The notes below the pieces were generated by a model. The model was not told the origin of the DNA. It was given only the letters and a program-made list of their open reading frames with translations, and did no database searches. A stretch of 64,000 nt of DNA, taken from positions 1 to 64,000 of the forward strand of contig CATQIH010000013.1 of the NCBI GenBank assembly GCA_958296015.1, written 5' to 3'. A program made the translations under genes and the position numbers. The DNA comes from Cyclobacteriaceae bacterium (lineage in GTDB: Bacteria > Bacteroidota > Bacteroidia > Cytophagales > Cyclobacteriaceae). Shown here piece after piece: positions 18,316-63,647 of the stretch (positions within the stretch are counted from its first letter, which is position 1; each line of letters starts with the position of its first letter).

Positions 18316-20010
18316 ATGGAAAATTTTGTCGTTTCAGCCCGTAAATATCGGCCTACCGGATTTGAGGAAGTGGTAGGACAGGAACATATCACTACCACCC
18401 TGCAAAACGCCATTGACAAAAAGCAACTTGCGCAGGCATTGCTATTTTGTGGTCCACGGGGTGTAGGCAAAACTACCTGTGCGCGTATTCTTGCCAAGAT
18501 GATCAATGGCTTTGACCAGCAGGAGCAGACCAATGCGCTCAATATCTATGAACTGGATGCGGCATCCAACAACTCAGTAGACGATATACGTAACCTGATA
18601 GACCAGGTGCGCTATCCGCCGCAGCAGGGTAGTTTTAAGGTGTACATCATTGATGAGGTACATATGCTCTCCAACCAGGCGTTCAACGCCTTTCTGAAAA
18701 CGCTGGAAGAACCGCCTGCGTATGCTATTTTTATCCTAGCTACCACAGAAAAGCATAAAGTCATTCCTACCATTCTTTCTCGCTGCCAGATATTTGATTT
18801 TAACCGTATTCAGGTGAGCGATATTGTGCATCACTTGGAAGCCATCGCCAGGCGCGAAGGCATCGAAGTAGAAGACGAAGCCCTGAACCTGATCGCGCAG
18901 AAAGCAGATGGGGCCTTACGGGATGCCCTGTCTATCTTCGACCTGATCGTGACTTTCTCTGCCGACCGCAAAGTCACCTACCAGGCTACCATCAAAAACC
19001 TGCATATCCTCGATTACGATTACTACTTCAAGATAACCGATCTGTTGACGAAGCAGCAGATGCCTCAGGTAATGCTTGTCTTTGATGAAATTCTTAAAAA
19101 AGGCTTCGATGGGCACAACTTTATCATCGGACTGGCAGAGCATTTCCGCAACCTGATGATCTGTAAAGATGCTGCTACGGTAAGGCTTTTGCAGGCATCT
19201 GACAATGTGCAGACCCGTTACCTGCAACAGGCAAAGGCTACCCCTCTCTCCTTTTTGCTGACAGCCCTCAACATGGCGGGTCAGTGCGATATCAACTACA
19301 AAAGCAGCAAAAATCAGCGGCTGCATGTAGAGCTGGTACTGGTTAAGATGACGTACATACCGTCTGCTGTAAGGCTGGCGCAGGCTCAGAGGCCGGACAA
19401 TACGATAGAAGAGGACAAAAAAAAAGTTAGCCAGTCACTAAGCGAAAAGCCTGCTGCCGTGCCTGTCAATGGTAATAGCTCTGCGCATGAGGTAAGCTCC
19501 GGAAGACCTGCTATCCAGCTCGGAAAATTGAAGAGCACCGTACGTATTCCTGATCCTGCTGCTACTGCCCCAGTGCAAAAGCAGCAAGCATCAGAAGATG
19601 TGGCTGTGATGGAGGAAGAAGCTCCTGAAGTGCCGGAAGAAAAAGTAGTGGACATGGAAGTACTGAAAGCTGTATGGAAAGACTTTGCCGAACAACGCAG
19701 GCAGTTGGGTAAAGAATCGGAATATATGATGCTCAACCAGGAAATAGCCTTGGCAGAAGATGGCTTTACCGTTCCGGTTAAATTTTCCAACGTATTGCAA
19801 GAAGACGTGCTCAATGGCATACGCCCAGAACTGGTGCAGTACCTGCGTAAAGCACTGGGCAACCGCAGCATAAATGTTGTGCCTAATATGGTGCGCGAAG
19901 AAAAGCAGCGCAAACTTTATACGCCCGGTGAAAAGCTACACTACCTGATAGAAAAGTATCCGGCAGTGCAGGAGTTAAAAGAAAAGCTGGGGCTTGATCC
20001 TGATTTTTAG
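18316..20010 (+). CDS. dnaX: DNA polymerase III subunit gamma/tau
   Basis: ARKYRPTGFEEVVGQEHITTTLQNAI, FCGPRGVGKTTCARILA, VYIIDEVHMLSNQAFNAFLKTLEEPP. Confidence 0.98.
   Translation: MENFVVSARKYRPTGFEEVVGQEHITTTLQNAIDKKQLAQALLFCGPRGVGKTTCARILAKMINGFDQQEQTNALNIYELDAASNNSVDDIRNLIDQVRYPPQQGSFKVYIIDEVHMLSNQAFNAFLKTLEEPPAYAIFILATTEKHKVIPTILSRCQIFDFNRIQVSDIVHHLEAIARREGIEVEDEALNLIAQKADGALRDALSIFDLIVTFSADRKVTYQATIKNLHILDYDYYFKITDLLTKQQMPQVMLVFDEILKKGFDGHNFIIGLAEHFRNLMICKDAATVRLLQASDNVQTRYLQQAKATPLSFLLTALNMAGQCDINYKSSKNQRLHVELVLVKMTYIPSAVRLAQAQRPDNTIEEDKKKVSQSLSEKPAAVPVNGNSSAHEVSSGRPAIQLGKLKSTVRIPDPAATAPVQKQQASEDVAVMEEEAPEVPEEKVVDMEVLKAVWKDFAEQRRQLGKESEYMMLNQEIALAEDGFTVPVKFSNVLQEDVLNGIRPELVQYLRKALGNRSINVVPNMVREEKQRKLYTPGEKLHYLIEKYPAVQELKEKLGLDPDF
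19417..19425 (+). promoter_or_regulatory. A9 homopolymer, candidate programmed slippage/frameshift site in dnaX
   Basis: Codons 368-370 are AAA AAA AAA; the -1 frame stops at TAG (19428-19430) and the +1 frame stops at TAA (19439-19441). Confidence 0.65.
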
Positions 20011-43345: not shown

Positions 43346-43957
43346 ATGGAATACCCCTCCAAGCTAATAGAAGATGCTGTCAATGAGATAGCCAAGCTTC
43401 CCGGTATTGGAAAAAAAACAGCCTTACGGCTGGCACTACATTTATTGAAAGTGGAAGAAGAAAGGACGCAATCATTGTCAGACGCTTTGGTCAACTTACG
43501 CACCAAAACGCAGTATTGCCAACGTTGTCACAACATCTCTGACGCTGCTTTGTGCGCTATCTGCACCGGCAACCGGCGTGATCATGGTGTGATATGTGTA
43601 GTAGAAAGCACCACCGACCTGATTGCCATCGAGAATACCTCGCAATATAATGGATTGTATCACGTGCTGGGTGGAGTCATCTCTCCGATTGAAGGCGTTT
43701 CTCCTGGCGACCTGAACATAGATTCGCTTATAGAGAGGGTTCACAACGCTGACGGTGATGTCAAGGAGATTGTGCTGGCTTTGAGTTCTACAATGGAAGG
43801 CGATACCACGTCGTTTTTCCTTACCAAAAAGCTACGCAGTTATCCTGTCAGCATCACCTCTATTGCCCGGGGTGTGCCCATTGGCAGTGAGTTGGAATAT
43901 ACGGATGAGATCACGCTGGGAAGAAGTATTGTAGGTAGAAAAGCTTACGAACAGTAA
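43346..43957 (+). CDS. recR: Recombination mediator protein RecR
   Basis: IAKLPGIGKKTALRLALHLL, CQRCHNISDAALCAIC zinc finger, YHVLGGVISPIEGVSPGDLNI. Confidence 0.97.
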   Translation: MEYPSKLIEDAVNEIAKLPGIGKKTALRLALHLLKVEEERTQSLSDALVNLRTKTQYCQRCHNISDAALCAICTGNRRDHGVICVVESTTDLIAIENTSQYNGLYHVLGGVISPIEGVSPGDLNIDSLIERVHNADGDVKEIVLALSSTMEGDTTSFFLTKKLRSYPVSITSIARGVPIGSELEYTDEITLGRSIVGRKAYEQ

Positions 43958-56974: not shown

Positions 56975-58768
56975 CTAAAACCGGCTGATATAACCAAAAT
57001 GCACTTTGGAATATTGCATGTTGAAAGGCTGTGCAACTGATCTGCCCAGGCCATATACCAAACTGAAAGTTCCTGCCGGAGTACTCAGATTGATACCTGC
57101 TCCCAAACCCAGGGGGTGATCTCGCGTATCTATTATAGTTGTTTTCTTTCGCAGATAAGCCTGATCATAAAAAGCAAAGAGGTAAGAATAGGTCTCTTTT
57201 GTCTGTTCAAACAACAGTCGTAGCTCCAGGTTTGAAAGCCCGTACTGAGAGGCAAAGAAAAAGTTGTCGTAAAATCCGCGCAGCGAGTGGATACCTCCTA
57301 TTCTATACATATCGTTAACAAATATGCTTTTTCCAAACAACCCTGCTCCACTGAGTTTGTAAAAAAACAGCCAGTTGTTTCCTATTCTGCGGTACAATTC
57401 ACCTGAAATATGCACCGCCTGCTGTCCAACTGATGTCTTTTTTGGTAGTTCTCCCACGCTATCAGAGGCTGCATATACATTGGGTTGTATGGTTTTTCGT
57501 CCTGTTTCTCCTCCCAGTGAGAATGTATACCCGCCAGTAGGATAGTAGACCTGGTTAGTCTTTTGCCGGGTGAAGTTTGCTGAAATACTCATCAAATCGA
57601 ACCCCCTCATATCTGCTGGCCTGTTTTCTACAGAAGTAATTCCTTCCAGCAGGCGGCTGGTTTGCCATCCTGCCGTAGTAGTAAGTTGATTGTTGCTAAA
57701 GGGAAAATCTAGCGTGAAGGCCATTTTGCGGTTATAAAATAGGGTATCTTCTTTAAGCATGTTAAACCATATAGCTGCATCCACTGGCAACCGGAAGGGC
57801 CGTGTATGCCTGTAGCTCATCTCGATGCGCTGGGAGGCTATCTGCAAGCGTTGCCAGCGAAGCAAAAACTCTTTGCCACTTTGCCAGAGGTTGTTAAGGT
57901 GAATATTGAGTTCGCCGGTCAGCAACAGGCTACCTTCTTTGCCTTCGGCAGGCAAAAAATTGATCACACCATCGGCACTGTTGCTTTTCGTTTCTGACAG
58001 GTTGAGGATCACATCGGCTGTTTCATTCTGAAAAGTAACTTCCACAGGCGCGCTGAGCGACAAGAAGGGCAAATTCATGAGCATCTCAGGAATCTGCATT
58101 ATCTTTCGTTCGTCGTAAGTACGTTTTGGTAAAATACCCAGATAAGCTTCTAGAAAGCTGCTTTTTACCTTGGCATTACCGGCAACCTGAAGCCTGCCAA
58201 AAGTGATCTTTGGGCCTGGTTGATAGTTGACGGCCGCATGTATTTTATGGTGATTAATGGCAGTATTGGCAAAACTTACCGTGGCAAACGGATGTCCGTT
58301 ATTTTCTGCATGTTTTAGCAATTTGCCAAATAATTTATCTACTTCGTCGTAATGAAATGGCTTGTTGATGAAAAATTTTTCACGAAAACCGGATCTTTCC
58401 TGTGCTAAGGCATCCAGATTACCAGGTTGCAGATAGGCCCACTCAAAATGTTCACCTAAGTTTAGGGCGGCAAAAAGCGTATCCTGTATTAATGTGTCTG
58501 AGAGGACACGGGCCGTGAAATAGCCTTCTTTCTGCACACTACTGATAAGTTTGGCCAATACCAGAGAAGCTCCGCGATCAGCCTGTTCTATGTGCTTCAG
58601 ATGCGCCTGGAATATTTTCATATCCGGCTCACTGCCTGATAATTTCAGCCTCTGGGCCACCACTGTGACTGACACTGATATACCATAAATGGTGAAAAAA
58701 AAACAAATAATCCAGCGGAATGGTAGATGCATAAGCTGACAATAGCGGTGGCTATGTAAAGCTTTCAC
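56975..58768 (-). CDS. BamA/TamA-like outer membrane protein (POTRA plus surface-antigen beta-barrel)
   Basis: N-terminal POTRA-like region, barrel segments, GGIHSLRGFYDNFFFASQYGLSNLELRLLFEQ, LGLGAGINLSTPAGTFSLVYGLG. Confidence 0.8.
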   Translation of the reverse strand: MKALHSHRYCQLMHLPFRWIICFFFTIYGISVSVTVVAQRLKLSGSEPDMKIFQAHLKHIEQADRGASLVLAKLISSVQKEGYFTARVLSDTLIQDTLFAALNLGEHFEWAYLQPGNLDALAQERSGFREKFFINKPFHYDEVDKLFGKLLKHAENNGHPFATVSFANTAINHHKIHAAVNYQPGPKITFGRLQVAGNAKVKSSFLEAYLGILPKRTYDERKIMQIPEMLMNLPFLSLSAPVEVTFQNETADVILNLSETKSNSADGVINFLPAEGKEGSLLLTGELNIHLNNLWQSGKEFLLRWQRLQIASQRIEMSYRHTRPFRLPVDAAIWFNMLKEDTLFYNRKMAFTLDFPFSNNQLTTTAGWQTSRLLEGITSVENRPADMRGFDLMSISANFTRQKTNQVYYPTGGYTFSLGGETGRKTIQPNVYAASDSVGELPKKTSVGQQAVHISGELYRRIGNNWLFFYKLSGAGLFGKSIFVNDMYRIGGIHSLRGFYDNFFFASQYGLSNLELRLLFEQTKETYSYLFAFYDQAYLRKKTTIIDTRDHPLGLGAGINLSTPAGTFSLVYGLGRSVAQPFNMQYSKVHFGYISRF

Positions 58769-62932: not shown

Positions 62933-63502
62933 TCAAGCATATTGATTTTCCCGGAGCGACTTTCTCCAGTTGATAAAACCGTATGTAGCTAATCCAAGGT
63001 ATAAAAAATACAACAGCGAAAGCATATAGAGTTCTTTGTAAAAGTAAATACCTGCTGCCGCGGTATCTACCACCAGCCAGAGTATCCAATTTTCTATTTT
63101 TTTTTTGGCCAGCATATACTGCCCTACTAGGCTGAAAGAAGTAGTGAATGCATCCCAATAGGCCAGATCAGCATCTGTGTAGTTGTCGAATAAGTAACCA
63201 ATCAGCACTACCCCAACAGCCCCTGCCAAGATCAGACCGGCCAAAACCTGCGGACTCAGCGTACTTACTTTTTTCTCAGACTTGCCTTTTCCTCCATACA
63301 GCCATTCGTACCACCCATAAAAACCCAGCACAAAATACACCACATGCAGAATCAGGTCAGAATATAGGCGAGCATCATAAAAAAGAATACCACTCAGCAC
63401 TACACCTACGATACCGAGCGGCCAGCCCCATATCTTTTCTCTGCTGTTGAAATACACAGCTACAACTCCAAAGACCAATGCAAAAAACTCTACCGTTTTC
63501 AT
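62933..63502 (-). CDS. PnuC/PnuT family nicotinamide riboside or thiamine transporter
   Basis: VYFNSREKIWGWPLGIVGVVLSGILFYDARLYSDLILHVVYFVLGFYGWYEW; overlaps or abuts the kinase gene. Confidence 0.88.
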   Translation of the reverse strand: MKTVEFFALVFGVVAVYFNSREKIWGWPLGIVGVVLSGILFYDARLYSDLILHVVYFVLGFYGWYEWLYGGKGKSEKKVSTLSPQVLAGLILAGAVGVVLIGYLFDNYTDADLAYWDAFTTSFSLVGQYMLAKKKIENWILWLVVDTAAAGIYFYKELYMLSLLYFLYLGLATYGFINWRKSLRENQYA

Positions 63503-63647
63503 GGAAGGCGAAGGTAAGCCACCGCGCATTTTTTACCAAAATATCTATGATTTTGAAAATATAAAAGTTCTTGCTTTATGCAGGCCAGTAAAATGGAATT
63601 TTTCTTTACACTTGTGGCTTCTTATACCAGCATAACCTCAAAACATA

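What the first reader, a model, noticed from the sequence alone, without database searches (positions are those of the whole stretch)
19411..19441. A9 slippery run in dnaX with stop codons immediately in both alternative frames: predicted tau/gamma production
The dnaX ORF contains GAG GAC AAA AAA AAA GTT AGC CAG TCA CTA AGC, with A9 at 19417-19425 (codons 368-370). A -1 shift (or one extra A in the transcript) gives AGT TAG. A +1 shift (or one A lost) gives AAG TTA GCC AGT CAC TAA. Either would make a ~371-374 aa gamma-like protein ending where the clamp-loader core appears to finish, before the low-complexity linker. Gamma is made by -1 frameshifting at A-AAA-AAG in E. coli, and slippage on an A9 run is known for Thermus dnaX. 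The site in this Bacteroidota gene is inferred, not demonstrated.
Basis: partly seen in the sequence, partly recalled or inferred. Interest (0 to 1): 0.72.

Follow-up and report, generated by a model that had tools for sequence, protein, structure and literature searches.

The report
Slippery A-run makes two dnaX proteins
A run of nine adenines in a DNA-replication gene very probably makes RNA polymerase stutter, so that one gene yields a long and a short protein; related bacteria across the phylum keep this run (mostly ten A's) even where single-base changes have swapped which protein is read directly from the DNA.

Summary
A9 at 19417-19425 is codons 368-370 of a 564-codon dnaX. Stops follow after 1 codon in the -1 frame and after 4 codons in the +1 frame. 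The run is not chance or a lysine patch. Of 323 dnaX loci sampled over the phylum, 290 have A9-A11 at the same place (79/79 in the family), against 1/580 control windows in the same genes. In most of the family the 0-frame ORF is gamma-sized and ends just after an A10. Over all loci the tau C-terminus lies in the -1 frame in 168, in frame in 116 (as in the window), and in the +1 frame in 6. Shifted C-termini are homologous and under purifying selection. The layout changed at least 37 times on the tree, including within genera by one A more or less. Both non-tau frames close within 7 codons in 81-94% of loci (null 13-14%). This fits bidirectional transcriptional slippage (Thermus-type) better than fixed -1 ribosomal frameshifting. 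No RNA or protein was measured. Thermus A9 slippage and the split layout (17 genes, 2013) are published. The near-universality in Bacteroidota, the interconverting layouts and the +1 layout were not found in the papers searched.

The parts
18316..20010 (+). dnaX, clamp-loader subunit gamma/tau; tau (564 aa) read in one frame
   Evidence: NF011531 1.1e-216, TIGR02397 7.3e-114; PF13177 and DNA_pol3_gamma3 PF12169; E. coli gamma/tau structures 1e-60 by sequence and by fold
18316..19386 (+). clamp-loader core shared by gamma and tau (residues 1-357)
   Evidence: Confident model up to the helix ending at 357; residues 360-442 disordered (pLDDT below 50); domain III match ends at 350
19417..19425 (+). 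A9 slippery run, codons 368-370 (Lys-Lys-Lys), about ten residues past the core, in the disordered linker
   Evidence: conserved as A9-A11 in 290/323 relatives
19428..19430 (+). TAG stop used after a net +1 A (or a -1 ribosomal shift): 371-aa gamma
   Evidence: near stop in this frame enriched over null in relatives
19439..19441 (+). TAA stop used after a net -1 A or +2 A: 374/375-aa gamma
   Evidence: near stop in this frame enriched over null in relatives
19654..19989 (+). tau-specific C-terminal domain (residues 447-558), absent from gamma
   Evidence: Folded block in the model; homologous domain found in the -1 or +1 frame of split relatives

Best explanation
RNA polymerase slips on the A9 run (T9 on the template strand) while transcribing dnaX and adds or drops A's in a fraction of transcripts. 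Transcripts with 9 or 12 A's give full-length tau. Those with 8, 10 or 11 A's run into TAG or TAA within 1-4 codons and give a 371-375-aa gamma that keeps the clamp-loader core but lacks the linker and the C-terminal tau domain. Because slippage puts some transcripts in each frame, it does not matter which product is templated in frame. Relatives therefore keep an A-run of about 10 and stops in both other frames, while the tau frame itself drifts between 0, -1 and +1. Shown: run, stops, conservation, three layouts, purifying selection on shifted tau. Inferred: slippage itself, the tau:gamma ratio, and a role for gamma.
For: A9-A11 at the gamma/tau boundary in 290/323 loci (A10 237, A9 33, A11 20, none longer). 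Tau in frame 0 (116), -1 (168) or +1 (6); shifted-frame C-termini match in-frame tau in 166/169 and 6/6 loci, with dN/dS 0.07-0.35 where measurable. At least 37 layout changes on the core tree, and mixed layouts within genera g36, g65, g96, g194, g236. Both non-tau frames stop within 7 codons in 81% (tau in frame) and 94% (tau at -1) versus 13-14% null, and 20% after other A>=6 runs in the core. The third frame, which a -1 ribosomal shift does not need closed, is enriched too (z=5.0 and 8.6, genus-thinned). Non-conserved shift direction is the criterion for transcriptional realignment in Antonov 2013 (PMC3711429). Bacteroidia ribosomes do not recognise SD sequences (PMC9976891 abstract), which removes the E. 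coli-type upstream stimulator. Insertion is about threefold commoner than deletion for E. coli RNAP (PMC6260861), which fits 168 loci needing one added A versus 6 needing a loss or two additions.
Against: No RNA-seq or protein data. Any A10 run also contains an A_AAA_AAA shift site, so ribosomal slippage may contribute. SD-like purine motifs upstream of the run are mildly enriched (14-18% vs 3-4%), and a minority of in-frame relatives have strong hairpins just downstream (21% with z<-2 vs 6% control), although that test missed the known E. coli hairpin. The third-frame enrichment is weaker for in-frame loci (37% vs 19% within 3 codons).
Confidence: 0.8

Rival explanations
1. Programmed -1 ribosomal frameshifting on A_AAA_AAA within the run makes gamma (in-frame species) or tau (split species), as in E. 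coli dnaX.
For: The heptamer is present in frame; the nearest stop in in-frame loci is usually in the -1 frame (80% within 3 codons); some relatives have hairpins or SD-like motifs; some loci without a long run keep E. coli-like sites, e.g. two Pontibacter-type loci with A_AAA_AAA and a -1 stop after 1 codon, and L197 with A_AAA_AAG.
Against: The tau frame is +1 in six loci; the third frame is also closed; run length is held at 9-11 although 7 would do; SD recognition is blocked in Bacteroidia (PMC9976891); the window shows no excess downstream structure (z=+0.7, a weak test).
Confidence: 0.13
2. The run only encodes a conserved lysine patch in the linker and has no recoding role.
For: K369-K370 are invariant and K368 nearly so in 19 aligned tau proteins.
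Against: AAG is not used at in-frame KKK sites; in more than half of the relatives with the run tau cannot be made at all without a slip; a KKK-coding A10 in pnuC of the same window is kept as A>=9 in only 2 of 30 relatives.
Confidence: 0.02
3. In split relatives gamma and the tau C-terminal domain are simply two separately translated proteins, and the run in the window is a relic.
For: The two ORFs are adjacent; the GeneTack paper (PMC3711429) lists translational coupling as a common cause of such arrangements.
Against: 140 of 174 shifted loci have no ATG/GTG/TTG in the tau frame from the run to 60 nt past the gamma stop, and only 2 have ATG; the tau frame is open right from the run through the linker in all; the layout switches repeatedly between split and in-frame.
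Confidence: 0.03
4. Assembly or sequencing errors at a homopolymer create the apparent layouts, or the tract is a DNA-level phase-variation switch.
For: Homopolymers are error- and mutation-prone.
Against: Layout is shared by many species within a genus and by single-contig genomes, with both downstream frames co-adapted; an essential replicase gene is an unlikely on/off switch.
Confidence: 0.02

Closest known systems
Thermus thermophilus dnaX (transcriptional slippage at A9; described in PMC1088944 and PMC5009743; original report Larsen 2000 not held)
   Same: A9 coding run, tau in one ORF, near stops in both other frames, gamma ending near the run
   Different: Different phylum; slippage not yet measured here; most relatives have A10 and a different tau frame
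Split two-ORF dnaX of Antonov et al. 2013 (PMC3711429): 17 genes in 12 genera, nine with A10, tau needs recoding
   Same: The layout found in most of the window's family (A10, 0-frame gamma, tau in -1)
   Different: The window has tau in frame; Antonov saw only -1 shifts, whereas here in-frame, -1 and +1 layouts interconvert within one phylum
E. coli dnaX (-1 ribosomal frameshift at A_AAA_AAG with SD and hairpin)
   Same: Same gene and same outcome (tau and gamma)
   Different: Long A-run instead of a heptamer, both alternative frames closed, no SD use in Bacteroidia, no clear hairpin in the window

Membership tests
dnaX (DNA polymerase III subunit gamma/tau) | Clamp-loader core homology, AAA+ plus lid plus domain III, followed by a tau-specific region | tested here: met
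Thermus-type transcriptional-slippage dnaX | Uninterrupted A/T run of about 9 or more at the gamma/tau boundary | tested here: met
   A9 at 19417-19425; A9-A11 in 290/323 relatives
Thermus-type transcriptional-slippage dnaX | Stops shortly after the run in both non-tau frames | tested here: met
   Window: 1 and 4 codons; relatives 81-94% vs 13-14% null
Thermus-type transcriptional-slippage dnaX | Transcripts with varied numbers of A's | not testable with these tools
   No RNA data available
Thermus-type transcriptional-slippage dnaX | Two proteins, tau and gamma, in comparable amounts | not testable with these tools
   No protein data available
Split dnaX (Antonov 2013) | 0-frame ORF ends as gamma and tau C-terminus lies in another frame | tested here: not met
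   Window tau is one ORF; met in 174 relatives
E. coli-type -1 PRF dnaX | A_AAA_AAG shift site | tested here: not met
   Site is AAA AAA AAA GTT; A_AAA_AAA is present
E. coli-type -1 PRF dnaX | Downstream stimulatory stem-loop | tested here: inconclusive
   Window z=+0.7, but the E. coli positive control also scored z=+0.25, so the test has little power
E. coli-type -1 PRF dnaX | Upstream Shine-Dalgarno stimulator | tested here: inconclusive
   Mild enrichment of SD-like motifs in relatives, but Bacteroidia ribosomes do not use SD (PMC9976891)

The most novel reading that the evidence does not exclude
Across Bacteroidota and Chlorobia, dnaX carries a frame-agnostic slippage element: a ~10-A tract with stops in every non-tau frame. 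Which subunit is templated in frame is selectively near-neutral and flips repeatedly (0, -1 and +1) through one-base changes, because polymerase slippage supplies the other subunit either way. In the majority of these species tau, a replicase component, would exist only through transcription errors.
Probability: 0.7. Interest if true: 0.68.

Novelty: new member of a known kind. Interest (0 to 1): 0.58.

Why it matters
It would make programmed polymerase slippage the ordinary way a whole phylum obtains its two clamp-loader subunits, and argues by conservation that the short form is worth keeping. It gives a natural experiment (37 or more layout flips) on how two decoding outcomes stay balanced. 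It also implies that many dnaX genes in these genomes read as a ~370-aa ORF plus a downstream orphan ORF although they are one split gene, so tau may be missing from databases.

Tried and rejected
Chance run in an A-rich gene: rejected (1/580 control windows). Plain lysine conservation: rejected. Hairpin test as a discriminator: dropped, because the E. coli positive control failed. Rfam element near the site: none above threshold. Larsen 2000 could not be read, so Thermus facts come from PMC1088944 and PMC5009743. Paper searches for dnaX slippage/frameshifting with Bacteroidota/Bacteroidetes gave only PMC3711429 and an unrelated translatome paper; subscription papers were not searchable. Supplementary Figure S3 of Antonov 2013 could not be read, so it is unknown which of its nine A10 species are Bacteroidota.

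Full report
The observation. The window contains a 564-codon dnaX at 18316-20010 (NF011531 and TIGR02397). Codons 368-370 are AAA AAA AAA (19417-19425), followed by GTT AGC. An extra A brings TAG after one further codon (371 aa, 42.1 kDa). A lost A brings TAA after four (374 aa, 42.4 kDa). Two extra A's also end at that TAA (375 aa). Three extra A's restore tau with one more Lys. The predicted fold is ordered to residue 357, disordered from 360 to 442 and folded again from 447 to 558, and the ordered core matches E. coli clamp-loader subunits. The run therefore sits just past the core, where a gamma/tau switch should be.

Is it more than chance? Long A-runs are not rare in the window as a whole, so I compared dnaX genes. 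Searches of the genus, family, order, class and phylum, regions taken from those genomes and one scan of named genomes gave 323 non-redundant loci; 7 of these had no A5 or longer near the site. A run of nine or more A's is present at this place in 290: 237 A10, 33 A9, 20 A11, none longer. The window's family has it in 79 of 79 loci. Controls: 1 of 580 400-nt windows in the same genes, 14 runs in 458 kb of the rest of dnaX, and 25 same-strand runs in 1.14 Mb of locus sequence. In in-frame genes Lys is AAA 69% of the time and 1 of 13 other KKK tracts is all AAA, yet every KKK at the site of A>=9 genes is nine A's. An A10 coding KKK in pnuC of the same window is kept as A>=9 in 2 of 30 relatives, which is what an unselected run looks like. 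Family f1 is Cyclobacteriaceae and the order Cytophagales, by match with named records such as Fulvivirga, Roseivirga and Algoriphagus.

What the relatives show. In most of the family the 0-frame ORF stops at about 365-380 aa, directly after an A10, and the tau C-terminal domain continues in the -1 frame. Over all loci with A>=9, tau is in frame in 116, at -1 in 168 and at +1 in 6. The shifted C-termini are true tau: 166 of 169 (-1) and 6 of 6 (+1) have an in-frame homologue, down to E 2.5e-68 for +1. Where synonymous sites are not saturated, dN/dS is 0.07-0.35 in the shifted frame. The +1 layout recurs in two species of one genus (L176, L359). On a tree of the core proteins, which excludes the run, the layout changes at least 37 times (FastTree, so a rough figure). 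Five genera hold two layouts. For example, within g65 an A10 split gene and an A11 in-frame gene have nearly the same flanks (L053, L018). The other 33 loci have shorter runs or none, many of them in deep phylum branches and in reduced genomes of f20.

Mechanism. A -1 ribosomal shift needs only one alternative frame closed and a constant direction. Slippage by RNA polymerase puts transcripts in all frames, so both non-tau frames should close early and the tau frame should be free to drift. Both frames stop within 7 codons in 81% (tau in frame) and 94% (tau at -1) of loci, against 13-14% at control positions and 20% after other A-runs in the core. The third frame, irrelevant to -1 shifting, is enriched too (z 5.0 and 8.6, one locus per genus). 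Antonov et al. use loss of a fixed shift direction as the mark of transcriptional realignment (PMC3711429), and this set meets that mark. E. coli RNA polymerase inserts about three times as often as it deletes (PMC6260861), in line with -1 layouts (one added A) far outnumbering +1. Bacteroidia ribosomes do not recognise Shine-Dalgarno sequences (PMC9976891), so the E. coli-type upstream stimulator should not work. Ribosomal slippage on the same run is not excluded: A_AAA_AAA is present, SD-like purines are mildly enriched and a few relatives have strong downstream hairpins, but the hairpin test failed on its E. coli control and carries little weight. Independent translation of the tau C-terminus is unlikely, since 140 of 174 shifted loci lack any start codon in the right place.

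What is known. Thermus dnaX uses A9 slippage with tau in one ORF (PMC1088944, PMC5009743), the layout of the window. The reverse layout was described in 17 genes of 12 genera in 2013, nine with A10, with slippage proposed by sequence comparison. [quoted passage not shown] Not found in the papers searched: near-universality in Bacteroidota, three layouts interconverting many times, the +1 layout, and conserved closure of both non-tau frames. The window gene itself is a new member of the Thermus-type kind; the phylum-wide pattern is the more interesting part.

Limits. No RNA or protein evidence exists here. Counts of loci are not independent events, so the genus-thinned test, the tree count and the within-genus flips carry the weight. 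Individual homopolymer lengths in draft genomes may be wrong, but layouts shared by whole genera and by single-contig genomes are not explained by that.

Noticed in passing
window 63097-63106 (-), in ORF 62933-63529: A10 coding Lys-Lys-Lys in a PnuC-like gene; used as a control, it is kept as A>=9 in only 2 of 30 relatives, so it looks unselected.
   Followed up: yes
window 58695-58703: A9 on the + strand, antisense to the beginning of the outer-membrane-protein-like ORF 56975-58768 (-), i.e. T9 in its sense strand; possible slippage site not examined further.
   Followed up: no
window 43411-43418, in ORF 43346-43957: A8 near the start of a recR-like gene (GKKTALR).
   Followed up: no
L165, L196 (f12 g152, Pontibacter-type): The long run is replaced by GCA AAA AAA GCT AAG, an A_AAA_AAA site with a -1 stop after 1 codon and somewhat stable downstream RNA (z about -2): a possible switch from polymerase slippage to ribosomal frameshifting.
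   Followed up: partly
L191, L158, L160, L170, just 3' of the run: Strong hairpins (z -3.5 to -7.2) directly downstream of the A-run in some in-frame relatives; could stimulate slippage or frameshifting there.
   Followed up: partly
L184, L187, L192, L194 (f20, genomes about 1 Mb): Reduced-genome relatives of the order have lost the A>=9 run and may make tau only.
   Followed up: no
L361-L368, L375-L377 (f81) and L343, L344 (f79): In the phylum-level group f81 the A9/A10 run is also kept, and tau is in frame in some species and at -1 in others of the same genus.
   Followed up: partly
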